This document shows, in pieces, positions 27,745 to 63,104 of a stretch of 63,969 bases of DNA. Every line of letters begins with the position of its first letter. The stretch's first letter is position 1. The translations under genes and the position numbers were made by a program. The notes under the pieces are model-generated. The model made no database searches, was not told where the DNA came from, and worked only from the letters and a program-made list of their open reading frames with translations. Source of the DNA: Haloarcula rubra (GTDB lineage Archaea; Halobacteriota; Halobacteria; Halobacteriales; Haloarculaceae); the NCBI RefSeq assembly GCF_019599465.1, contig NZ_RKLR01000017.1:1-63969 (forward strand), read 5' to 3'.

Positions 27745-28483
27745 GCACTGTTTAGTTGAGCGAGTTTGAGAAGCGAGGAGGCCGTAGCGAGAAGTGTCCA
27801 TGCAACTCGTAGACCTCCTCAGCGAGACGTTGAACGAGGACAACGAAGACGTTTGGGAGAACGAGCGCACCCCGACACCGGTCCGGCGATTTGGGTTCGT
27901 CTCCATACGGCGGGGCTGTCGATCAGGGAGACGGTTGCGATCTTAGACCTGCTGGGTGTCGATCACTCTCACGGTGCGGTCTGGAACTGGGTTCATACAC
28001 TGTCTGAAGCCCAGAGCGACCCGCCGACGGCGGAGCCGTCGCGGGTCGCGGTCGACGAGAAACAAATCACGGTTGACGGGGAAAAGAAATGGTTGTACGC
28101 CGCTGTCGATACTGAATCAAAGTTGCTGCTCGAAATTGACGTGTTCAGTCGCCGCGGGACTGGCCCCGCGGCGGCGTTCCTACATCAGCTCACCGAGAAA
28201 CACGATGTCGCCGATACAGTGTTTCTCGTCGGTGCTGGCGGCTATCTGACTGCCCTTGCTCGTCATGGATTGAGCGGTCGGCTCGACTACCGAACCCGGA
28301 ACCACATCGAAAAATGGTTCCAGGCGGTGACCATGCGAATCGATCGCTTTCACTCCTGGAGAAGCAGTCAATCCAGCGCGAAACAGTGGCTACGACACTT
28401 CAGACATCACTACAACCATGAAAGGCCGAACCAGGCACTTGACGGACGAACGCCAGCTGAGGAGGTTCAGAACTAGACAGTGC
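27745..28483 (+). mobile_element. IS6-family element, inactivated
   Basis: About 740 bp with short inverted ends (GCACTGTTTAGTT at 27745-27757, AACTAGACAGTGC at 28471-28483; one mismatch). It holds a single transposase gene with a frameshift and a lost catalytic Asp. Inserted just upstream of the ugp operon promoter. Confidence 0.75.
27801..28476 (+). pseudogene. IS6-family transposase, frameshifted and lacking the second DDE aspartate
   Basis: The N-terminus MQLVDLLSETLNEDNEDVWE starts at 27801. Near 27890 a one-base deletion (TTTGGGTTCGTC) moves the reading to the frame VRLHTAGLSIRETVAILDLLGV. The rest is complete: SRVAVDEKQITVDGEKKW (first Asp), NHIEKWFQ (Glu), then NHERPNQALDGRTPAEE. The middle motif reads VFLVGAGGYLT, where the family has VFLVDGAGYLT, so the second catalytic Asp is missing. 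Two independent lesions; inactive. Confidence 0.85.
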
Positions 28484-28544
28484 CGGTTGAAAGTGAAGTT
28501 CTCTACGTCGACACGTCCCCGTAGCCCGCCAGGTTAAATCCAAC

Positions 28545-50847: not shown

Positions 50848-51654
50848 CTATTGTGATGGTGCTACCTCGCGAATCCGGAGCGAATATTGATCGGGTAGCT
50901 CCTCAATGCTGACCCGAATCTTCAGGATGCGTTCATTCCTAGCCAGTGCTTCCATCGATTCGACCTGCGACCGCTCGAATGACGCCCCGCCGGTCTTGAT
51001 TTCACAGTAGTACCGCTCCAGCAGCGCACCGTCCCACCCGTCCTTGGCCTCAACGACACAGTCCGGCGTCCACCGTTCTTTCCCGTCCGAACAATCGACC
51101 GAGAGCAGTCGGCCGCGATTGACATCCACGTTCAGTCCCCACTCGAGGTTATCCTCGTCGATGTCCAGGTCTTGCCGGACGAAGTAGACAAGTGCGTGTG
51201 GCTTTGGTGATTCTAAGAGGATTGCCTCGCCGAGCGCACCGTAGAGGTTTGCCCCGACGTCGAACGTCCACGTGTCCCCGTCGACGTCGGCCGGTTCCTT
51301 GATTGACGGGTTATGATCGGCGAGGAGGTACGCGTCGATGTCTTTTGGTTCGTTCTCAGGAACGGCTTGGATTCTGAGCGACCCGTCCGACGCCGACAAC
51401 TGACCGGCGTACGCTTCTGCGTGGTGTCTCGACCCGAATGCAAGAATACCTCCGTGCGATTCGGTCACCGCCCGAAGTTGTGCATTCACCTCGAGTGCAC
51501 CAGCTTTCGCTTCGACAGTGTAGCCTGTTCGGGCTCCTGGTTCAATGGGGTCGGCAGTATGGTCGGCGCTGGTCGTTTCGTTAGCTGTCGGGTCTTCGAC
51601 GAGGGCCCCGTCCTCGAACCGCAGTTGAAATGTCTCTTGTTCGTTGTTAGTCAT
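50848..51654 (-). CDS. PD-(D/E)xK-like protein (DUF3883/NERD-type unclear)
   Basis: 268 residues. The N-terminal two thirds have no recognised domain. The C-terminal third carries WTPDCVVEAKDGWDG then RYYCEIKTGGASFERSQVESMEAL: Asp ... Glu-x-Lys with a following Gln-containing helix, the PD-(D/E)xK nuclease core. Divergently transcribed from the HNH nuclease gene (219 bp between starts), which suggests a restriction or anti-invader role. Could also be a non-catalytic end-binding protein. Confidence 0.55.
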   Translation of the reverse strand: MTNNEQETFQLRFEDGALVEDPTANETTSADHTADPIEPGARTGYTVEAKAGALEVNAQLRAVTESHGGILAFGSRHHAEAYAGQLSASDGSLRIQAVPENEPKDIDAYLLADHNPSIKEPADVDGDTWTFDVGANLYGALGEAILLESPKPHALVYFVRQDLDIDEDNLEWGLNVDVNRGRLLSVDCSDGKERWTPDCVVEAKDGWDGALLERYYCEIKTGGASFERSQVESMEALARNERILKIRVSIEELPDQYSLRIREVAPSQ

Positions 51655-51873: not shown

Positions 51874-52917
51874 ATGCAACATGCGTTCCAGGTCGGCCAA
51901 CAATACCGAGACACGGGGAGCTACCGCAACTCAGACGACCAGTTCTTGCGGTGGATTCGTGGCCCCCTCGACAGCGGTATCAAGAACACCGGCGGTATCC
52001 GTGATCTCGGAGCGGATCGGTCCGATACGCCTGCGGCGCTGGTACTTGTCTCGAACGATAGTGGCGTCTCCCAGCACGATGACCCATGGGAAGACACGCT
52101 CGCGGTCAACGCCGGCTACATCAGCTACTGGGGCGACGCAAAGGCCTCGAACCCCTACGACGAGTCCGCACAGAACCAGAAAATCAAGACTGCCTTCGAC
52201 AGGGCCGCGGCCGGGCGGCGAGAGGACGTCCCACCTGTCCTCGTCTTCCGCAAACCTGAATCAGGCGTCGTCGAGTTCTGTGGGCTCTGCGTCCCAGACC
52301 ACTTCGAAGTCGGGCCGTACCATGCTGAGGGCGGCACGCAGATCCCGAACTACCAGTTCCACTTCTCCATACTCAATACCAACGCTGTCCCGGTCACGTG
52401 GCTCCACGAGCGCGCTCAGCAGAACGACGATAGCGAGGCACCTGACGTCTGGCAGCACTGGATCCAGACCGGAGAGGTCGCCCAGTGGCCAACCGGCGAA
52501 ACCCTTGACCAGAGTGGCCGAGTCCGACGCTACGAAACCACCGAAACTGTCGTCAGTGACGCCTTTCGCGAAAAAACGTTTGATCGCTATGGCCATACTT
52601 GCACCATGACCGGGATTCAAGAAGACGATCTCCTGGACCTAGCGCACATCCTCCCGCGAAGCCAGCATCCTGATCTTGCCGAGCACCCGGAGAACGTCCT
52701 CGTGTTGAACTCGCTGCACCACCGGGCATTCGACGCCGCGCTGTTCACCATCGACAGCGACTATCGTATCCGAACGAGCCCGTCGTTCGATCCAGCGCAC
52801 CCGTTCCTACGGGAAACTATTTCGGAAAGAGCGGGAGAGGAGCTATCGTTCCCACCCAACGTACAGATTCAGCCCTCTTTTCTCGAGGAGCTCAACACAG
52901 GTCTGTCGTGGTTGTGA
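51874..52917 (+). CDS. HNH endonuclease with SRA-like N-terminal domain
   Basis: 347 residues. N-terminal half FQVGQQYRDTGSYRN, RDLGADRSDTPAALVLVSNDSG, NAGYISYWGDAK, PPVLVFRKPESGVVEFCGLCVPDHFEVG, NYQFHFSILNTNAVPVTWLHER resembles the SRA/sulfur-binding modules of ScoMcrA-type restriction enzymes. The C-terminal HNH has CTMTGIQEDDLLDLAHILPRSQHPDLAEHPENVLVLNSLHHRAFD (His, Asn, His in place). It would cut DNA bearing a modified base recognised by the first domain, i.e. type IV restriction. The HNH half is homologous to that of 61596-62582. Confidence 0.8.
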   Translation: MQHAFQVGQQYRDTGSYRNSDDQFLRWIRGPLDSGIKNTGGIRDLGADRSDTPAALVLVSNDSGVSQHDDPWEDTLAVNAGYISYWGDAKASNPYDESAQNQKIKTAFDRAAAGRREDVPPVLVFRKPESGVVEFCGLCVPDHFEVGPYHAEGGTQIPNYQFHFSILNTNAVPVTWLHERAQQNDDSEAPDVWQHWIQTGEVAQWPTGETLDQSGRVRRYETTETVVSDAFREKTFDRYGHTCTMTGIQEDDLLDLAHILPRSQHPDLAEHPENVLVLNSLHHRAFDAALFTIDSDYRIRTSPSFDPAHPFLRETISERAGEELSFPPNVQIQPSFLEELNTGLSWL

Positions 52918-53982: not shown

Positions 53983-54108
53983 GGCGAGTGCCTCAGCGCT
54001 TGACCCCGAGGCGGTTCACAGCCACTGTTTCGGTGTATCAGAATCAAAAGATATCTCCCATCGCCATAGCCAATCAAAAAGAGGTTTGTAAAACCTGGCT
54101 CACAGCTA

Positions 54109-54115
54109 TTATATA
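54109..54115 (+). promoter_or_regulatory. TATA box of the regulator gene at 54138
   Basis: TTATATA centred 26 bp upstream of the GTG at 54138, the same geometry as at 11866/11897. Confidence 0.55.
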
Positions 54116-54137
54116 CAGTCCGATCCAAATTTTACAT

Positions 54138-55178
54138 GTGCTCCAGCAGAGCGATCTCAAAATCCTCTCCAGTCTTCGACAGAAGTCGCTGGAGGGTTCT
54201 GAGATCAGTGAGCGAACAGGGCTCGCATCCGGAACAGTTCGGCGACGAGTTGCGACACTTCGTGAGCAGGAGCTTGTAGAACGACTCGAAACAACGGAGG
54301 GGTCGAAAATCTTCTACCGGCGTCAGCAAAGCGACGTCGCGACAGCACTCGATACCGCTGCAGACTCCGTTCCACACGTCGACCTTCCAGACTTTTTGAC
54401 GCCGTCTCTACTAACGGTTCTCTATTGGGTAGAGAAACCACTTGGTCCCTCAGAGATTGCTACGCGTGTCGACCTCAGCCGTGTTCGTGTACAACAGCTC
54501 CTCTCGACATTAGTCAGACGACAGTTCGTCACAAAGCCAGATCGGGGACATTACGAATTGAAATCCGAATATAAGAAACTCGGCAGACTTGCAGAGGCTG
54601 TCGCCCGCCACACACAGCGAGTTGAGATCAAACCCGTCTTTCCAGATGCCACGATCGTCTGGGCGGCCCCCTGTGAGGCACTGGTCGTTCCAGGTGAGTC
54701 GACGAAGGGGCTGGCCGATGAACTCGTGGACGACACTGAGTGGACAGTTACCGGACTCGCTGCATTCCCACAGTTCGGATTTGATTTCACCGTCGCTGAT
54801 GCCCCTCTACTCTACAGAAATACCGCTGAGAAGACCGGTGACCTGCAAGTGCACCCAGCAGAAGCGGTCTGTCACGCACTTTGCCGTCGTATCGAGCATC
54901 GATTAGTCCGGTTTTGTATTCTTGTCGTACTCGATGGGGTTATGCGAGGGGAGATTTCACTAACGGGGCTGCAGGAGACAGCAAGCATCTACGGTATGGA
55001 ACGTGAAATCGAGGCGCTGGTCACGTTTGTCGAACAGCGTGGTGACAGTAACGTACTGCCGACAGATCTGTCGAGTTCGTTTCCCTCGTGGCAGCGGGTA
55101 GTAGATACAGGGACACAGTACGATCTCGATGTTGAGCGAGCGGTCAGCCAGCTGCCGGAAGAAACGGGGGAATCGTAG
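54138..55178 (+). CDS. two-winged-helix transcription regulator, paralogue of 11897-12820
   Basis: 346 residues from a GTG fixed by the TATA box at 54109. First wHTH about 5-55 (LKILSSLRQKSLEGSEISERTGLASGTVRRRVATLREQELVERL), second about 85-135 (LLTVLYWVEKPLGPSEIATRVDLSRVRVQQLLSTLVRRQFVTK). The C-terminal domain includes ATIVWAAPCEALVVPGEST, GLAAFPQFGFDFTVADAPLLYRN and HPAEAVCHALCRR. It stands 62 bp before a DUF6036 nucleotidyltransferase gene, an AbiEi/AbiEii-like pairing in which the wHTH protein would act as repressor and antitoxin. Confidence 0.75.
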   Translation: MLQQSDLKILSSLRQKSLEGSEISERTGLASGTVRRRVATLREQELVERLETTEGSKIFYRRQQSDVATALDTAADSVPHVDLPDFLTPSLLTVLYWVEKPLGPSEIATRVDLSRVRVQQLLSTLVRRQFVTKPDRGHYELKSEYKKLGRLAEAVARHTQRVEIKPVFPDATIVWAAPCEALVVPGESTKGLADELVDDTEWTVTGLAAFPQFGFDFTVADAPLLYRNTAEKTGDLQVHPAEAVCHALCRRIEHRLVRFCILVVLDGVMRGEISLTGLQETASIYGMEREIEALVTFVEQRGDSNVLPTDLSSSFPSWQRVVDTGTQYDLDVERAVSQLPEETGES

Positions 55179-55240
55179 CGAACCGGGCCGATGTCAGGTC
55201 AACAGTACTCTTTTCAACATCTATGCAGAGAAAACAGACG

Positions 55241-56116
55241 ATGAGCGACGAGCAGCGATACTCAAGTCGGGACGACATTATGGAGACGTTAGAGAAGATC
55301 GACGGACAGCTGGAACAAGAGGCGGTTGTCTATCTTCTTGGGGGTGGTGCGATGGCGCTCGAAACAGTCAAACCGGCTACCAAAGATATCGATTTGCTCA
55401 CGCCAACAAACGAATATTACCGGCGTATCCGAGCAACACTGCTCGAACTTGGCTTCGAGCCGAAGGAACACACCGAACCGGATTATGACTCGCTGGGCGC
55501 TACGAGTGTTCTCAAATACAACGAGGGCCACATCGATCTCTTCGACCGGCAGGTGATGTCGAAGCTGTCGCTCTCTGAGGGTATGCAAACACGTTCCGAG
55601 TCTGTATTCGAGGGTGAACGCTTGACCGTGTATCGACTCAGTTGGGTCGATATAACGCTATTCAAATCGATGACACCGCGGGACGATGACCGAAACGACG
55701 TGGAAGCACTGATCGCGCGTGGAATCGACTTCGACGTACTCGCGGCAGAAATCGACGACCAATTGCCGCTAAACTACGGTGTCGACGAATACGAATGGAT
55801 TGTACAGGATGCAAAAAAGCATCCGATTTTCCAGCTCGAATCGACGTTTACAGACATCGAAGGGTTGCCGAACGATCTTGTCGAGAAAGTGCAGCGGTTG
55901 GCAGATCTCGTTGATGCCGAACGGGCTCTCTTCTACGAACTCCGAAGCCGAGAGTCAGTCGAGAAGGCGAGCTTCATCGCCGAGTTTGCACCAGACACCT
56001 ATTCGACCGAGGAACAGCTACGCGCCGGACTCACACGACTTGAAGAGAAGGGATTAGTCGAAGTGAATAGTGGACAGGTCGTTTTCGTGACCGATCCACT
56101 CCAAGAGCAGGAGTAA
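55241..56116 (+). CDS. DUF6036-type nucleotidyltransferase (AbiEii-like)
   Basis: 291 residues from the ATG at 55241 (MSDEQRYSSRDDIMETLEKI). NTase core: VYLLGGGAMALETVKPATKDIDLLTPT (GG...DxD-type motif, about 29-55), HIDLFDRQVMSKL supplies a further Asp, and SWVDITLFKSMTPRDDDRNDVEAL follows. The C-terminal ~70 residues form a wHTH-like module (EEQLRAGLTRLEEKGLVEV). Homologous nucleotidyltransferases are toxins of type IV toxin-antitoxin systems (AbiE, MenT). Together with the upstream regulator it is a candidate system; toxicity is an inference. Confidence 0.75.
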   Translation: MSDEQRYSSRDDIMETLEKIDGQLEQEAVVYLLGGGAMALETVKPATKDIDLLTPTNEYYRRIRATLLELGFEPKEHTEPDYDSLGATSVLKYNEGHIDLFDRQVMSKLSLSEGMQTRSESVFEGERLTVYRLSWVDITLFKSMTPRDDDRNDVEALIARGIDFDVLAAEIDDQLPLNYGVDEYEWIVQDAKKHPIFQLESTFTDIEGLPNDLVEKVQRLADLVDAERALFYELRSRESVEKASFIAEFAPDTYSTEEQLRAGLTRLEEKGLVEVNSGQVVFVTDPLQEQE

Positions 56117-56175
56117 TGTCTCCCGCCTTGGACAGCCGGTGCATTAATTGATTGTCACCTCGCCAATCAGAGCAG

Positions 56176-56466
56176 ATGGTGAATAAACGTGAACGCCAGA
56201 TTCAGAACAAGGCTGTCACGATTGCCAGTCGGGACTCGTATGAGGTTCGTGAGACAGATATCAGCCAGTTAGAGAAGCTTCGAACAGCAAGCGGACTGAA
56301 TATGGGCGAGATCAGTGATCTTTTTGGCGAGTCAAGTAACTGGTACTCGAATCATAAACGGTCAGGCGGGACCCACGAATTCTCGCGGCCAGACTATATC
56401 CGAGTCAAGGATTTGCTTGAGGTCGAGTATCTTCGAGACCGTGTCGAGTTCAGTAGGCTCTGGTGA
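56176..56466 (+). pseudogene. small HTH-like protein truncated by IS5 insertion
   Basis: From the ATG at 56176: MVNKRERQIQNKAVTIASRD, LEKLRTASGLNMGEISDLFG, NWYSNHKRSGGTHEFSRPDY, VKDLLEVEYLRDRVEFSR. The middle looks like a helix-turn-helix. The last three codons and the stop are supplied by the IS5 left end (GGCTC at 56456), so the natural C-terminus is lost. DNA right of the IS (57404-57541) has a short coding-like frame (HDQIVTLLNDDTDSITADNR) that might be related. Confidence 0.5.
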
Positions 56467-57395
56467 ATCGCTAGACAGCGTCGGCCTCGACCATCAGAAC
56501 TAGGAAGATGAAGCGGGAAACCGCCGATGCTCTATGTCGAAGATCTCCCGCTTCACGAGCAAAGTCGTTCAGTTAGCTAAAAATGCTGTTGGTGAGCGAG
56601 GCGAAGTCGCCGCCCCCGGAGGGGGTGGCTGCTTCGCTGAGTATGCGGTAGTGTCGCTGCACTGTCTGCGGGTTTACCTGGAGAAATCCTACAGAGAAGC
56701 ACTTGATTTGCTGAGCGAGATGCCGCATATTCTCGGGGAGATCGGCCTCGAAGCGACCGATCTCCCAGACCACTCCACGCTAATCAAGTGGTTTGACAGA
56801 ATCAAGACAGCACTCTGGCGAGTGCTGCTGCGCCTGTCGGCGCAGCTGCACGAGCCGAGCGAACACGCTGCTATCGACGCGACGTTCTTCGACCGCGAAA
56901 ACGCCAGCAAACACTACTGCCGCCGGACGAATTACCGAGTTCAGACGCTCAAAACAACAGCTCTCGTCGACACAGAAAGCCAAGCCATTCTGGACGTTCA
57001 CTGTACGACCGAGAAACGCCACGACACACAGCTCGGCTGGCAGGTCGCCCGCCGCAACGCGGACAACCTCGCCAGTCTCGCCGCTGACAAAGGCTACGAT
57101 TGGATGGAGTTACGCGACAAACTCCACGAAGAGGGCGTGAGACCGCTGATAAAGCATCGTGAGTTCCGGCCCATCGATCACGCGCACAACGCGCGGGTCG
57201 ATGGGTCTCGATACCGCCAGAGAGCGATGTGTGAGACCATTTTCTCGACGATCAAGCGCACGCTCGGCGATGCTGTACGTGCGCGAACTTGGTACGGCGA
57301 ATTCCGAGAACTCGTCCTGATGTGTGCGGTTTACAAAACCAAGAAGGCAGTGAAACTGTGAAATCAAGCCACGTCTGGCGATTCACCACGGCCCA
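56456..57395 (+). mobile_element. IS5-family insertion sequence, complete
   Basis: 940 bp. The left end GGCTCTGGTGAATCGCTAGA and the right end (complement GGGCCGTGGTGAATCGCCAG, ending at 57395) share TGGTGAATCGC. It holds one intact transposase gene. A truncated sister copy lies at 37098-37437. Confidence 0.85.
56534..57361 (+). CDS. IS5-family transposase (ISH type)
   Basis: 275 residues, intact. MSKISRFTSKVVQLAKNAVG, YAVVSLHCLRVYLEKSYREALDLLSEMP, SEHAAIDATFFDREN (first D), LASLAADKGYDWMELRDKL (second D), RYRQRAMCETIFSTIKRTLG (E of Y-x2-R-x3-E-x6-K) make a complete DDE set. Probably active; it has interrupted the small gene at 56176. Confidence 0.92.
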   Translation: MSKISRFTSKVVQLAKNAVGERGEVAAPGGGGCFAEYAVVSLHCLRVYLEKSYREALDLLSEMPHILGEIGLEATDLPDHSTLIKWFDRIKTALWRVLLRLSAQLHEPSEHAAIDATFFDRENASKHYCRRTNYRVQTLKTTALVDTESQAILDVHCTTEKRHDTQLGWQVARRNADNLASLAADKGYDWMELRDKLHEEGVRPLIKHREFRPIDHAHNARVDGSRYRQRAMCETIFSTIKRTLGDAVRARTWYGEFRELVLMCAVYKTKKAVKL

Positions 57396-57548: not shown

Positions 57549-60320
57549 TCAGGTTTGTGAATTGACGAGGCGCTCTGCTTCGGGAGTTGCTCGGATCCGC
57601 ACGGAATCATCCCGGTAAAAGTATTCGTCGAGCGTTGAGGTAAGATAGCGATGCACGTCTTTTCCGGAGTCGAGGTTCCACCGTGAGGCCAATTCCCCGT
57701 TGCTTGTGGGTTGCATTGTCACGATATCACTGAGCCTCCCCAGGTCTTTCTCAGGGAGTTCGGAGGTCTCATCTGCAGACTCATCGTCGATAGCACCGGC
57801 AGTGATCGGGGTAGGGAGGTCCGGGGAAACCGTGGTTTCGCTGTCCCAGTCGAAGATCGCGTCGTTGCTGTCAGCGTACGCGATGAAGGAGCGAAGAATG
57901 TTGTCGCGCGTGGTTTTGCTGCCGATACGGTCTACGTTACCGATGACGATAAGTTTGGATTTCGGGCGTGTTGCGGCGACGTTGAACCGGTTGCGATCGC
58001 CGGCGAATTGCAGGCTGCCTGGGTCGGTGCCGACGACACTGTAAATGATGATGTCGCGTTCGCGACCCTGGAAGCCGTCGACGGTTTCAACGTCGACGGT
58101 GTACTCGGTGTCGAGTTCGTCGCGGATAACGTTCCGTTGTCCGCGGTACGGAGTGATAACGCCGATCTGGTCCGGGTCGAGGCCGTAGTCTTGGACCAGG
58201 CGTGTGACTAACTGGACACAGACTTGGGCTTCCTGCTTGTTGAACGGGCTACCGTAGCGTTTACGCCAGCCTTGCTCAGCGCTGGTTGCCACCATCGACA
58301 CTGGTTCGTCGAGGATTTGATCGACAAACAGGTCGTCGGAGCGCAGGTGCGAGGGGGTTGTGATGGCTTCCGTCCCGGTGTTAGCGATCTCGATGTTTGA
58401 GTCGTAGACATGCTCGCGTGCGAATCCGATAATCGGCTGAGCAGATCGGTAGTGCGTGCGGAGCCATGCGTCTTCGCCGAAGCGGTCCCGGAGGAAGTTG
58501 AAGATGCTTGCCCCAGCTGGGGGGCGCCCAGAGTCAGTGTTGATGCTTTTCAGGACTGGCAATAACTGGTTGTGATCACCGACGACGACCCATTTTTTCG
58601 CGGTCGCCATTGCCAGGAGTCCCATTGGCGTGCTGATTTGGCTGGCTTCGTCGATGATGACGGTGTCGAAATCAACGCGCGCGAGCCCGCCAAGTTGGGA
58701 ACGGACCAGGGTTGCGCCGGTGATATCGGCTTGCTTGACTGATGTGGCTTCGGATTCCTCCCATTTGTCGCGGAGCTCTCGTTGGAGTGTAGTCAACTCT
58801 TCGCGTTCGGCGGCGATTTCAGCGTCGATCTCACCTACTCGATTGGACTCTTGTAGTCGATGGTCGACATCGTTGGTGAGGTACTGTTTGTGTTCTTCGA
58901 GCGCGTTGATTCGCTCTTGATGCTCACTAATCTGGGCTTTGAGTTCATCGACACGCTGTAACAAGTCGCTCACTGATGCTGTGTCGCTGTCGATGACTTT
59001 GTCCAACATCAGTTCTTTCGCTTTCGTCGAGACTTTTTCGGGCCGACCGACGCGGACGACTCGCTGCGGGTTGTCACCGGCGAGTTTCTCGATGACGTTG
59101 TCGACGGCGATGTTGGTGTGTGATGTGACGAGGACGCGCTCACCGGCGTTAGCCAGTTCCTGTGCTGCTTTGGCAATCACTTCGGTTTTCCCTGTCCCGG
59201 GCGGGCCGACGACCGTGTACAGATCCCCGGGCTGCATGCCGAGGACATGGTTGACGACATCTCGCTGTGATTCATTTAGTGGGAAGGTGTCTCGGTCGAC
59301 ACTGGTCAGGTGTGAGTGATCCGTCGGAGTGATTTGCGGTGGCGAGTCGCTGTGCAGCGTGTCAAGGAGCTGCGTTGAGTTCTGTACGAGGCGCTTGTGA
59401 TCCGGGCTTGCCGTGTCGTACCCAGTAAACCCACGTCGAGCTTCAAGCAGCCAGGATTGCTGCAGAATGGTCGTGATATGTGATTCTGCACTCCATAACT
59501 CGACGGACAGCCCCTCTGCGAGCGGGAGCGACCCCATGTCACCGTAATCGACGTGCACTTCACTTTCGGTGGTATTGATCACTCGCCCGAGGAGGAGTCG
59601 TCGATCCTTCACCGTGTACCCGACTTGACTGCCGTCTTCGATCCAATCCGGTGGACGATGCGCTGTCCCGATGACAACGAACTGTGATTCAGCGTTGTGT
59701 TCAGTGATTTCCCCAGAGAGTTTCTGGTCATACCGGTCTTGCCGTTCACGTTTCGCCTCTTCGTGGACGATTTGTGGCCACCCGCCAAGCAGCGTGTCAC
59801 AGTCAGGGCAGGTCAGCTGTGGTGCGGACTCGAAGACGTACCCGCAGTTGTCACAACTGAGCTGACCCTCACTTTCGATTGTGACTGCACGCTCCAACGC
59901 TTCTCGAATGACAGTGTGGTTGTTCTCAAGGAAGTTTCGTGCAGTCGCTACCGGCTCCTCGATCTCAGATACGACCTCAAGCGTTTCGAGCCGGTCTTGA
60001 ATCTGACTGGTAATTGCCGACCCCAGGAAACGACTCCCTGGGGTAAATTCACGTTGCGCTCCGACCAACGCGTAGTGAACAATGGCTGCGACTGCAGCGT
60101 TGCGTCCGAGTTGTTCAGCAAACGCAGTGATACCCGCTCGAGGACACTCGGTGATCCAATCTTGCGTTCGTCGAGCAGAGGGTGGGAACTCGAATTGGAG
60201 TTGCGGTGCCGTTCGAGAGACGACGTACGGCGCATCGATTAACAGGTCGACCGTTCTGATGATCTCCGGCGCGATTCCCAACTTTCGACCACACTGCGCA
60301 TGCACACACCACCTCGTCAT
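57549..60320 (-). CDS. SF1 DNA/RNA helicase with zinc-ribbon N-terminus (Upf1/Dna2-like)
   Basis: 923 residues. The N-terminal 345 residues are unique: CVHAQCGRKLG, then a zinc ribbon LSCDNCGYVFE...TCPDCD (Cys 156, 159, 171, 174) and an OB-like segment about 210-290. Helicase core: NESQRDVV (Q motif), GPPGTGKTEV (372-381, motif I), VLVTSHTNIAVDNV (Ia), coiled coil about 450-525, IIDEAS (555-560, motif II), VVGDHNQLLP (III), HYRSAQPI (IV), GVITPYRGQRNVI, TVDGFQGRERDIIIYS (V), NVAATRPKSKLIVIG (VI). It follows the EVE/PD-(D/E)xK gene by 137 bp on the same strand, so it is probably the motor of a two-gene restriction system. The C-terminus (about 855-920) is wHTH-like. Confidence 0.88.
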   Translation of the reverse strand: MTRWCVHAQCGRKLGIAPEIIRTVDLLIDAPYVVSRTAPQLQFEFPPSARRTQDWITECPRAGITAFAEQLGRNAAVAAIVHYALVGAQREFTPGSRFLGSAITSQIQDRLETLEVVSEIEEPVATARNFLENNHTVIREALERAVTIESEGQLSCDNCGYVFESAPQLTCPDCDTLLGGWPQIVHEEAKRERQDRYDQKLSGEITEHNAESQFVVIGTAHRPPDWIEDGSQVGYTVKDRRLLLGRVINTTESEVHVDYGDMGSLPLAEGLSVELWSAESHITTILQQSWLLEARRGFTGYDTASPDHKRLVQNSTQLLDTLHSDSPPQITPTDHSHLTSVDRDTFPLNESQRDVVNHVLGMQPGDLYTVVGPPGTGKTEVIAKAAQELANAGERVLVTSHTNIAVDNVIEKLAGDNPQRVVRVGRPEKVSTKAKELMLDKVIDSDTASVSDLLQRVDELKAQISEHQERINALEEHKQYLTNDVDHRLQESNRVGEIDAEIAAEREELTTLQRELRDKWEESEATSVKQADITGATLVRSQLGGLARVDFDTVIIDEASQISTPMGLLAMATAKKWVVVGDHNQLLPVLKSINTDSGRPPAGASIFNFLRDRFGEDAWLRTHYRSAQPIIGFAREHVYDSNIEIANTGTEAITTPSHLRSDDLFVDQILDEPVSMVATSAEQGWRKRYGSPFNKQEAQVCVQLVTRLVQDYGLDPDQIGVITPYRGQRNVIRDELDTEYTVDVETVDGFQGRERDIIIYSVVGTDPGSLQFAGDRNRFNVAATRPKSKLIVIGNVDRIGSKTTRDNILRSFIAYADSNDAIFDWDSETTVSPDLPTPITAGAIDDESADETSELPEKDLGRLSDIVTMQPTSNGELASRWNLDSGKDVHRYLTSTLDEYFYRDDSVRIRATPEAERLVNSQT

Positions 60321-60457
60321 GATATCTAGTAAGAGTGTCTGTCATTACATATTAAACTATTCACTAAATGAGGCAAAATTGGATGCTGTAAGGGCCGTCA
60401 CGTATGGCGGTTATCAACAGCAGTGAGTACATCCGTGTATCGACGTATCCCCTAGTT

Positions 60458-61471
60458 TCAAAACACGTCTTGCAGCGGCCCGGCTTGCTCGACGGTTGCA
60501 TATGTGTCCCGAACGCCAGCAAACGAGAGATACCGGAGGCTACAGTGATCAGCATTTTCCAGCACATGCTGGAACGTCGGCCGATTGATCTCTTCACGAA
60601 CCTTGTCCTCATCGTCATCGGGGGCGACGATGTGCATGTCGACGGCGATGTTTGGGACTTTGACCATGAAGTCGGTCATGCGGAGGATACCGCTGTAGAT
60701 GCTGGTGGTGCTTTCGACTTCGAAGAGTTTGACGATGAAATCGTCTTGCAGCCAGATGACGTCGACATATTCGATGATGCGCGTGGCGGCGGCGCTGAAC
60801 CCAGGAAGGTTGAGGTTCTTGACGCAGTCTCCGCCGAGTCGGTGCCCGTTGTACGTGCGGTTTTTGTCGTTCGTGGCGACGTACACGTAGTAGCCGTGTC
60901 GTAGGCCGAGTTGAATGAGTAACCACTGTATTTCTGTGTGTTCTCGTGGATCGTCATCGTCCCCACCAGTGTCTGGTGGGTCGATCTTGCCGCCGTTATG
61001 GAAATCCTGGAAGGCTTCTTCGACTGAATTGTATTCCCGGAGGAGACTACTGACTGCGTCTTGGGACACGCGAAGGAACCGGTAGGGAACCCAGTTGTCC
61101 TCGTACCCGAGTAGCTGCGCGATTCGCTCTCGGTCGACAGATATCTCCTGGTAATCGGTGACAGTATAAATGAATCGACTGTCAGGGTTATCCCACAGCG
61201 TGTCACCGACTGACGGGTTTTCGAAGACAGCGCCGACACGACCGGCAGCAAAGAAATCACCGTCGTTATACAAGAGGAGTGGATCACCGGTCTCCATTTC
61301 TTCGAAAAACGTGCGTTTCTGATTCCCGTCGGTGGTACCCCAAATCCGTGCTTCGGCTTGTTTCTGGAGATCTTCAGGCGCTTCCGCAGGGACAGATACT
61401 GGCGAGGCAACGGTGTCGTTGAATCGCTGAATCCAATCGTCACCGACAGGAACGACATACAGGCGAGTCAC
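60458..61471 (-). CDS. EVE-like domain fused to PD-(D/E)xK nuclease domain
   Basis: 337 residues. N-terminal EVE/PUA-like reader (about 1-150): WIQRFNDTVASPVS, ARIWGTTDGNQKRTFFEEMETGDPLLLYNDGDFFAAGRVGAVFEN, YRFLRVS. Acidic linker (PDTGGDDDDPREH). C-terminal PD-(D/E)xK fold (about 178-320): TEIQWLLIQLGLRHGYYVYVA, IEYVDVIWLQDDFIVKLFEVESTTSIYSGILRM (Asp in VDVIW, then Glu-x-Glu instead of Glu-x-Lys), HIVAPDDDEDKVREEINRPTF. The FEVExTTSIYSGILRMxD motif is a known variant in restriction-like proteins. Probably senses a modified base and cleaves, with the neighbouring helicase. Cytosolic. Confidence 0.75.
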   Translation of the reverse strand: MTRLYVVPVGDDWIQRFNDTVASPVSVPAEAPEDLQKQAEARIWGTTDGNQKRTFFEEMETGDPLLLYNDGDFFAAGRVGAVFENPSVGDTLWDNPDSRFIYTVTDYQEISVDRERIAQLLGYEDNWVPYRFLRVSQDAVSSLLREYNSVEEAFQDFHNGGKIDPPDTGGDDDDPREHTEIQWLLIQLGLRHGYYVYVATNDKNRTYNGHRLGGDCVKNLNLPGFSAAATRIIEYVDVIWLQDDFIVKLFEVESTTSIYSGILRMTDFMVKVPNIAVDMHIVAPDDDEDKVREEINRPTFQHVLENADHCSLRYLSFAGVRDTYATVEQAGPLQDVF

Positions 61472-61595
61472 AGTCTGTTGATTCCGGCTGGAATGTCTTG
61501 TAGCTTAGTAGAATACTGGGTCAGAAAACGTGTACTCCACGGCGGCACGTCCGATTCTAGAAAGATCCATACCTTGGCCCTGTCACTGTGTCGTC

Positions 61596-62582
61596 ATGCC
61601 TCCAGATCGCCTCCGTAGTATCGTCCCGATGTTTGGGGGCGGGACACGCTACGTCGAGACATTGGATGCGGTGCTTGAGTTCGTGACCAACCATCACCCA
61701 ACAACAGACGAACTCGTAGGGTGGCACCGCGGATCGTTTACGAATGTATCCAGTCGAGACTCGATTATGCGGCGGGTGAGCTATCTCCAACAGGTCGGGT
61801 TCCTCAGCCAGACGAACGACCAGTGGGAACTCGGTGACGCCGGTCGGGAGTACACCGACCACGGTGACGTAGCGACGCTGCTGCGAATTATGTGTGATCG
61901 GAACGTCGGGCTGCGAAGTCTGCTGTATGCGTTGGTTGCTGGGTCGATGACACTCGGGGAGGTGAGTGAGCAGCAGCTCGATACGCATCCAGAGTTAGGG
62001 TGGAGCCGCGGAGAGACAGACATGGCAAAGCAGCGGGTGAATTGGCTGCGCAGTATGACCCTCGTTGAGAAGCGCGGCGACGAGTACGCGTTGACGGATG
62101 ATGGCCTCCAGTTCGTTGAGAGCGCGGTGGAGGAGTGGGCTGATTCGGACTGGACACCGTCGGTGAGCGATGCTGGGGAACAGGCTGGAACGTACGAAAC
62201 GACTGTCCATGCACGGTCGGTCGATCCGGAGTTCCGTGCGACGGTTCTGTCACGGCACGACCGCACGTGCCCGATCTCGGGGGTGGATCACCCGGGACTG
62301 CTGGACGTGGCGCATATCTTGTCGTGGAGTGATTATCCCGCACACAGGGCCGATATCTCGAACGTGCTGGCGCTCAGTAAGACGCACCACGCGGAGTTTG
62401 ACCGGGAGCTATTCACGATTGACCAGGACTACCGGTTGCGTGTGCATCCTGAGTTCGAGACTGAGAGTGACGTGTTACAGCGGAAGATCATTGACCGCGA
62501 AGGGGAGCGAATCTCGATTCCAGAGAAGAGTTTGAAGCCGCAGTACGTCAGGCAGCACAATTCGTCGCTTGCGTGGCTGTGA
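61596..62582 (+). CDS. HNH endonuclease with winged-helix N-terminus
   Basis: 328 residues from the ATG at 61596 (MPPDRLRSIVPMFGGGTRYV). Two wHTH-like repeats (about 18-95 and 105-190: YVETLDAVLEFVTNHHPTTDELVG, RVSYLQQVGFLSQTNDQWELGDAGREY; RVNWLRSMTLVEKRGDEYALTDDGLQFV). HNH domain about 225-285: CPISGVDHPGLLDVAHILSWSDY, ISNVLALSKTHHAEFD, with a C-terminal tail LAWL shared with the HNH protein at 51874. Divergent from the EVE nuclease gene (125 bp between starts), so the three genes form one bidirectional locus. Only the nuclease module is shared with the other HNH protein; the reader domain has been exchanged. Confidence 0.78.
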   Translation: MPPDRLRSIVPMFGGGTRYVETLDAVLEFVTNHHPTTDELVGWHRGSFTNVSSRDSIMRRVSYLQQVGFLSQTNDQWELGDAGREYTDHGDVATLLRIMCDRNVGLRSLLYALVAGSMTLGEVSEQQLDTHPELGWSRGETDMAKQRVNWLRSMTLVEKRGDEYALTDDGLQFVESAVEEWADSDWTPSVSDAGEQAGTYETTVHARSVDPEFRATVLSRHDRTCPISGVDHPGLLDVAHILSWSDYPAHRADISNVLALSKTHHAEFDRELFTIDQDYRLRVHPEFETESDVLQRKIIDREGERISIPEKSLKPQYVRQHNSSLAWL

Positions 62583-62672: not shown

Positions 62673-63104
62673 TCAAAGGTGATCGTTGTACCAGACGAGT
62701 GTTTCGCCATATTGGAGGCCGTCGGTCGGCGTTTCGATTGAAATCGTGGCGTCAGCGTCATCGAGCAGCGGGATGAGTTCGTCGTAGTAATCGCGGCCGG
62801 CATGGAACACGAATTGCGTTCCGTCCCTGAGCAACCCCTTATCTTGGAGCTGAGTGTCGACCGTTTCCGACCAGTCTCGTTTCCGTTCGACCGATGCGCC
62901 GCTCAGGGTGTCGTCGTACGGTTCGATAGGTTTGCCATCGGGTTCGAGCAGGCCGTGTTTCGCTGAGAGGATGTACCAGTCATCGTGATTTGCTCTGGCG
63001 TACTGGCGGGCTTTCCTGAAAAACGCAGATCCGTCATACAGGTCTTGTGGCGGTGCTGCGTCCTCACGCTTGCTCTTCGTGCAACTCACGAGACCAATTT
63101 CCAT
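62673..63104 (-). CDS. DUF6884-family protein
   Basis: 143 residues. IGLVSCTKSKREDAAPPQDLYDGSAFFRKARQYARAN, WYILSAKHGLLEPDGKPIEPYDDTL and FHAGRDYYDELIPLL are the DUF6884 hallmarks (LVSCsKsK, L(Y/S)..lF.ka..YA, SAKHGLl.p...i.pYd.tL). Members cluster with restriction and nucleic-acid-modification genes and share a fold outline with 7-deazaguanine/YaaA-type proteins, but no activity is established. Convergent with the HNH gene, 90 bp apart. Confidence 0.75.
   Translation of the reverse strand: MEIGLVSCTKSKREDAAPPQDLYDGSAFFRKARQYARANHDDWYILSAKHGLLEPDGKPIEPYDDTLSGASVERKRDWSETVDTQLQDKGLLRDGTQFVFHAGRDYYDELIPLLDDADATISIETPTDGLQYGETLVWYNDHL

What the first reader, a model, noticed from the sequence alone, without database searches (positions are those of the whole stretch)
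57549..62582. EVE-nuclease + zinc-ribbon SF1 helicase + divergent wHTH-HNH: candidate modification-dependent restriction system
A 337-residue protein joins an EVE-like modified-base reader to a PD-(D/E)xK core with a FEVESTTS variant, is followed on the same strand by a 923-residue SF1 helicase with an N-terminal zinc ribbon, and is divergent (125 bp) from a double-wHTH HNH nuclease. Reader, motor and two different nucleases in one bidirectional locus resemble type IV restriction (McrBC, ScoMcrA) in logic, but I know of no named system with this exact set. A DUF6884 gene is convergent with the HNH gene.
Basis: partly seen in the sequence, partly recalled or inferred. Interest (0 to 1): 0.75.

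Follow-up and report, generated by a model that had tools for sequence, protein, structure and literature searches.

The report
Separate DNA-cutting genes in defence island
A salt-loving archaeon carries, side by side, a predicted enzyme that should cut chemically marked foreign DNA, a second DNA-cutting enzyme and a helicase; comparison with hundreds of relatives shows these are mostly separate defence genes that happen to sit together, not one new three-part machine.

Summary
The genes are real and placed as described, but the three-gene "system" is not conserved. In 391 haloarchaeal genomes the EVE-nuclease occurs in 13, the helicase in 9 and the double-wHTH HNH in about 58; nuclease and helicase occur together only in this genome, and their junction is not shared with relatives of either gene. 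The 337-aa protein is best read as a single-chain type IV (modification-dependent) restriction enzyme: an EVE/YTH-type reader whose model matches Thermococcus McrB's m6A-reading domain and the EVE-HNH enzyme VcaM4I, fused to a nuclease domain with a conserved D...ExE motif shared with bacterial "type II restriction endonucleases". It tends to lie near adenine methyltransferases (7 of 13 within 10 kb, 0.34 expected), suggesting it complements them against modified viruses. The HNH enzyme has a BpuJI/FokI-like double winged-helix module on an HNH domain 45-55% identical to short haloarchaeal wH-HNH proteins. It and the EVE-nuclease form a divergent pair intact in one other genome and degraded in two. 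The helicase is a separate Upf1/IGHMBP2-like gene of unknown role. New members of known kinds; no activity has been shown.

The parts
60458..61471 (-). EVE/YTH-type reader (about residues 1-157) fused to a PD-(D/E)XK-type nuclease domain (about 176-330; D237, E251-x-E253); predicted single-chain modification-dependent restriction endonuclease
   Evidence: (PADLOC REase_II E 1e-12)
61596..62582 (+). Double winged-helix + HNH endonuclease, 328 aa (GTG at 61530 is an over-extension)
   Evidence: (HNH_2 E 5e-12)
61472..61595 (.). Divergent intergenic region, 124 bp; relative to Halovenus rubra it lacks about 410 bp that hold a small ORF (80 aa) preceding the HNH gene there
57549..60320 (-). SF1 helicase of the Upf1/IGHMBP2 type with internal zinc ribbon and C-terminal DUF5797; neighbour, not shown to belong with the nucleases
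60321..60457 (.). Junction between EVE-nuclease and helicase; not conserved on either side; TATA-like TTTAATAT at 60356-60349
62673..63104 (-). DUF6884 protein, convergent with the HNH gene; also next to the HNH gene in one other of 18 loci examined (L059)

Best explanation
The locus is part of a haloarchaeal defence island made of separate modules. The 337-aa protein is a stand-alone type IV restriction enzyme: its EVE/YTH-type domain flips a modified base into an aromatic pocket (invariant W44 and W93 are candidate pocket residues) and the fused PD-(D/E)XK-type domain then cuts nearby DNA without needing the helicase. Which base it reads is unknown. It probably complements nearby restriction-modification or BREX systems by attacking viruses whose DNA modification evades them. 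The divergent HNH gene is a second nuclease whose double winged-helix module supplies target recognition; the two nuclease genes sometimes travel together. The helicase is an independently acquired neighbour. Shown: gene structure, domain content, motif conservation, distribution, lack of EVE-nuclease/helicase linkage. Inferred: modification dependence, cleavage, target base, antiviral role.
For: Conserved D/ExE in orthologs; nuclease domain about 40% identical to bacterial proteins annotated type II restriction endonuclease with a different N-terminal domain. The same reader is fused to HNH, Mrr-type and McrB-type partners elsewhere in haloarchaea. EVE-nuclease/helicase linkage only in this genome; homology on either side of the junction stops at the gene ends. 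Neighbouring adenine methyltransferases in 7 of 13 loci within 10 kb. Literature: EVE-PD(D/E)XK restriction enzymes predicted as a class (PMC7641849), base flipping by the VcaM4I EVE domain (PMC7897488), BREX plus a type IV enzyme giving complementary protection (PMC8565348).
Against: No biochemical data. The structure model is modest (mean pLDDT 61; much of the nuclease half below 50), so the PD-(D/E)XK fold rests on motif, secondary structure and homologs. The enrichment near methyltransferases could mean a classical RM partnership. The methyltransferase statistic assumes random placement and ignores general defence-island clustering. The host genome has several candidate adenine methyltransferase loci, so a broad m6A cutter would be self-toxic.
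Confidence: 0.72

Rival explanations
1. The three genes form one modification-dependent restriction system (reader-nuclease, motor, accessory nuclease).
For: Adjacent genes, two on the same strand; the helicase has intact Walker motifs and in a few other loci also lies near nuclease-like genes (L044, L045, L050, L086).
Against: No other genome has both an intact EVE-nuclease and the helicase; junction not conserved; 137-bp gap with a TATA-like element; none of the other EVE-nuclease loci examined has the helicase in the stretch fetched, mostly about 20 kb.
Confidence: 0.07
2. The divergent EVE-nuclease and double-wHTH HNH genes form a two-nuclease cassette, with the helicase an outsider.
For: Same divergent pair in Halovenus rubra with DNA homology that starts and stops at the two stop codons (60458 and 62582); degraded copies of both genes in the same divergent layout in G033 and G384; a wHTH2-EVE-HNH single-chain fusion in L053; five full-length HNH genes have an EVE-domain gene within about 5 kb against about 0.1 expected by a rough random-placement estimate (positions).
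Against: Most EVE-nuclease orthologs lack the HNH gene nearby and most HNH genes lack the EVE-nuclease; in the G384 remnant the HNH piece is only 46% identical; clustering of defence genes inflates the estimate.
Confidence: 0.2
3. The EVE-nuclease is the restriction half of ordinary RM systems, partnered with whichever adenine methyltransferase lies nearby.
For: Directly abutting an Eco57I-like methyltransferase gene in L038, HsdM 67 bp away in L033, methyltransferase genes adjacent in L034 and L039; enrichment.
Against: The methyltransferases belong to unrelated classes (type I, Eco57I-like, N4/N6, Dam-like), one is a remnant lacking the catalytic part (L041), and the window's contig has no hit to the two methyltransferase families searched.
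Confidence: 0.13

Closest known systems
EVE-PD(D/E)XK type IV restriction enzymes predicted by Bell et al. 2020 (PMC7641849)
   Same: Same core architecture: EVE-like reader fused to a PD-(D/E)XK nuclease in one chain
   Different: That paper is a survey and predicts function; this haloarchaeal family was not found named in the passages read
VcaM4I (EVE-HNH endonuclease, PMC7897488)
   Same: N-terminal EVE reader and C-terminal nuclease, single chain, no helicase
   Different: HNH instead of PD-(D/E)XK; reads 5mC/5hmC, whereas the base read here is unknown
Thermococcus gammatolerans McrBC (YTH-type McrB)
   Same: Closest solved reader domain by fold and by profile
[quoted passage not shown] PMC11037411, PMC10101028)
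   Same: HNH domain of the window protein is 45-55% identical to haloarchaeal proteins of about 240 aa with a wH-HNH layout
   Different: Double winged-helix module resembling BpuJI/FokI recognition domains rather than a single DpnI-like wH (E about 3e-3)
Mokosh (MkoA)
   Same: Best PADLOC hit of the helicase, over the helicase core only
   Different: No phospholipase D partner; different N- and C-terminal domains

Membership tests
EVE/PUA-type modification-dependent (type IV) restriction endonuclease | PUA-superfamily reader domain | tested here: met
   Foldseek to TgMcrB YTH, VcaM4I, YTH, THYN1 and EVE structures; EVE profile matched by 8 of 13 relatives, below the curated cut-off for the window protein
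EVE/PUA-type modification-dependent (type IV) restriction endonuclease | Fused endonuclease domain with conserved active-site motif | tested here: met
   D237 and E251-x-E253 conserved in orthologs that retain the region; homologs annotated as restriction endonucleases; fold not confidently modelled
EVE/PUA-type modification-dependent (type IV) restriction endonuclease | No obligatory cognate methyltransferase | tested here: inconclusive
   No hit to two methyltransferase families on the window's contig, but 7 of 13 loci have one within 10 kb
EVE/PUA-type modification-dependent (type IV) restriction endonuclease | Cuts modified and not unmodified DNA | not testable with these tools
   Needs biochemistry
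McrBC | McrB AAA+ GTPase plus McrC | tested here: not met
   No McrB or McrC among the genes of the locus; the helicase is SF1, Upf1-like
ScoMcrA (SBD-SRA-HNH) | Sulfur-binding and SRA domains on the HNH protein | tested here: not met
   The HNH protein has two winged helices before the HNH domain and no SRA or SBD hit; the phosphorothioate-restriction NCBIfam match is far below its cut-off (48.7 of 180 bits)
wH-HNH 6mA-dependent endonucleases | HNH domain of the same family | tested here: met
   45-55% identity to 238-241 residue open frames with one N-terminal winged helix and an HNH domain; their identity with the enzymes of PMC11037411 was not checked by accession
wH-HNH 6mA-dependent endonucleases | Single DpnI-like winged helix as reader | tested here: not met
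   Two winged helices; best structural matches are BpuJI and FokI recognition domains, none with E below 0.001
Mokosh | SF1 helicase MkoA with phospholipase D nuclease MkoB, or the fused MkoC | tested here: not met
   Only the helicase core matches; no PLD gene among the neighbours scanned

The most novel reading that the evidence does not exclude
A divergent two-nuclease cassette in which a base-flipping EVE/YTH reader-nuclease and a BpuJI/FokI-like winged-helix HNH nuclease act together on modified viral DNA, one reading the modification and the other the sequence, with single-chain wHTH2-EVE-HNH fusions as the merged form.
Probability: 0.15. Interest if true: 0.6.

Novelty: new member of a known kind. 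Interest (0 to 1): 0.36.

Why it matters
It gives an experimentally tractable haloarchaeal EVE/YTH-PD-(D/E)XK restriction enzyme and a double winged-helix HNH enzyme, and it shows reader and nuclease modules being shuffled freely in haloarchaeal defence islands. If the enzyme reads a viral base modification, it would help show how archaea counter modified viruses. As a 'new three-gene system' it does not hold.

Tried and rejected
Single three-gene system: rejected on distribution and junction. Mokosh, McrBC, ScoMcrA: defining parts absent. Search for EVE-nuclease relatives in viral contigs: none. Pfam EVE over the own genome: no hit at E 0.001, so the curated model misses this family. Truncation of the helicase by the IS5 element: two orthologs have about 120 extra C-terminal residues, but five others end where the window's does (one more is shorter), and no trace of the extra domain was found downstream.

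Full report
What is there. The window is one whole contig (C8, 63,969 bases) of a 4.67-Mb haloarchaeal genome. An IS5-family element (terminal repeats near 56456 and 57393) lies about 155 bp beyond the helicase stop.

The EVE-nuclease. Pfam sees EVE only weakly (E 0.11), but an AlphaFold2 model from 12 orthologs (reader part mostly pLDDT 61-85, nuclease part poor) matches the YTH-type N-terminal domain of Thermococcus gammatolerans McrB (E 1e-6, target TM 0.68), VcaM4I and a long list of YTH and EVE structures. A profile of 13 diverse haloarchaeal readers picks the same McrB domain first in the PDB, though weakly (E 0.025). In that alignment W44 and W93 of the full-length protein (W43 and W92 of the sequence as aligned) are invariant; that they line the pocket is inference from the base sandwich described for VcaM4I (PMC7897488) and from general knowledge of YTH domains. 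The C-terminal half has conserved H178 and E180, D237 and E251-x-E253, a D...ExE arrangement as in BamHI (own knowledge), and is about 40% identical to the C-terminal part of bacterial proteins annotated type II restriction endonuclease that carry a different N-terminal domain. So it is a reader joined to a widespread nuclease.

Distribution. In 391 class genomes the EVE-nuclease (full-length or nearly) is in 13, the helicase in 9, the double-wHTH HNH in about 58. A further search of 146 family genomes found no new full-length EVE-nuclease and one more helicase. No genome but this one has both an intact EVE-nuclease and the helicase; G384 has a broken helicase and an EVE-nuclease fragment about 900 kb apart. 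DNA homology to the EVE-nuclease of G180 ends exactly at the stop codon 60458, and homology to the helicases of G386 and G271 ends about 9 bp inside the helicase start, so the 60321-60457 junction is shared with neither.

The pair that does recur. In G180 (Halovenus rubra) the same divergent HNH/EVE-nuclease pair occurs; homology runs from one stop codon to the other (88% and 80% identity) and the flanks differ, with a small 80-aa ORF in the gap that the window lacks. G033 keeps only the C-terminal pieces of both genes, back to back, and G384 a C-terminal HNH piece and an N-terminal EVE-nuclease piece in the same divergent layout. Five full-length HNH genes (G000, G180, G024, G053, G386) have an EVE-domain gene within about 5 kb; a rough random-placement estimate expects 0.1, which overstates the case because defence genes cluster. 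The 510-aa protein in L053 joins double wHTH, EVE and HNH in one chain.

Neighbours elsewhere. The EVE-nuclease lies near N6-adenine methyltransferases in 7 of 13 loci within 10 kb, 0.34 expected under random placement (P about 8e-9, same caveat): type I HsdM, Eco57I-like enzymes, and genes that I read as BREX (BrxC/PglY-like and PglX-like proteins in L035 and L036; by inspection of the sequences, not by a BREX-specific search). BREX with a type IV enzyme giving complementary protection has been shown in Escherichia fergusonii (PMC8565348), which makes complementarity the most economical reading.

The HNH protein. Its model (confident only for the winged helices) matches the recognition domains of BpuJI and FokI (E 3e-3 to 1e-2), and its HNH domain is 45-55% identical to short haloarchaeal wH-HNH proteins, a layout for which 6mA-dependent restriction has been shown (PMC11037411). 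It is therefore probably a restriction nuclease; whether it depends on modification is open.

The helicase. It is an SF1, Upf1/IGHMBP2-like protein (TIGR00376, E 5e-77, below that model's cut-off) with an internal zinc ribbon and C-terminal DUF5797; MkoA of Mokosh matches only its core. It sits among defence-type genes elsewhere, but no constant partner was found.

Verdict. Observation confirmed; the one-system interpretation is not supported, the type IV interpretation of the EVE-nuclease is the best reading. New members of known kinds in a shuffled defence island, with a modest chance that the two nucleases form a cassette.

Noticed in passing
51874-52917 (+): AspBHI-N (SRA-like) domain fused to an HNH domain 39% identical to that of the 61596 gene: another predicted modification-dependent nuclease in the same window.
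   Followed up: partly
53988-56116 (+): Winged-helix regulator (HVO_2833_C) followed by a DUF6036 nucleotidyltransferase with a weak AbiEii match: possible AbiE-like toxin-antitoxin pair.
   Followed up: no
56152-57393: IS5-family element with terminal inverted repeats; its left end supplies the stop codon of the small ORF 56152-56466, which therefore looks truncated.
   Followed up: partly
50848-51654 (-): 268-aa protein with no match in Pfam, PADLOC or NCBIfam; contains an EIKTG stretch that could be part of a nuclease motif.
   Followed up: no
28156-28484: About 69% DNA identity to the stretch just upstream of the helicase in L044 (9068-9399); nature unknown.
   Followed up: no
L070:9400-11460: Single chain with two reader-like domains and an McrB-type AAA ATPase, followed by a gene clustering with one next to the helicase in L044.
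   Followed up: partly
L051, L052, L057, L058: EVE-like domain fused to an Mrr-type nuclease (about 448 aa), in L051 and L058 within about 2.5 kb of a double-wHTH HNH gene.
   Followed up: partly
L031:8958-9200: 80-aa small protein found just upstream of the HNH gene in several genomes and absent from the window.
   Followed up: partly
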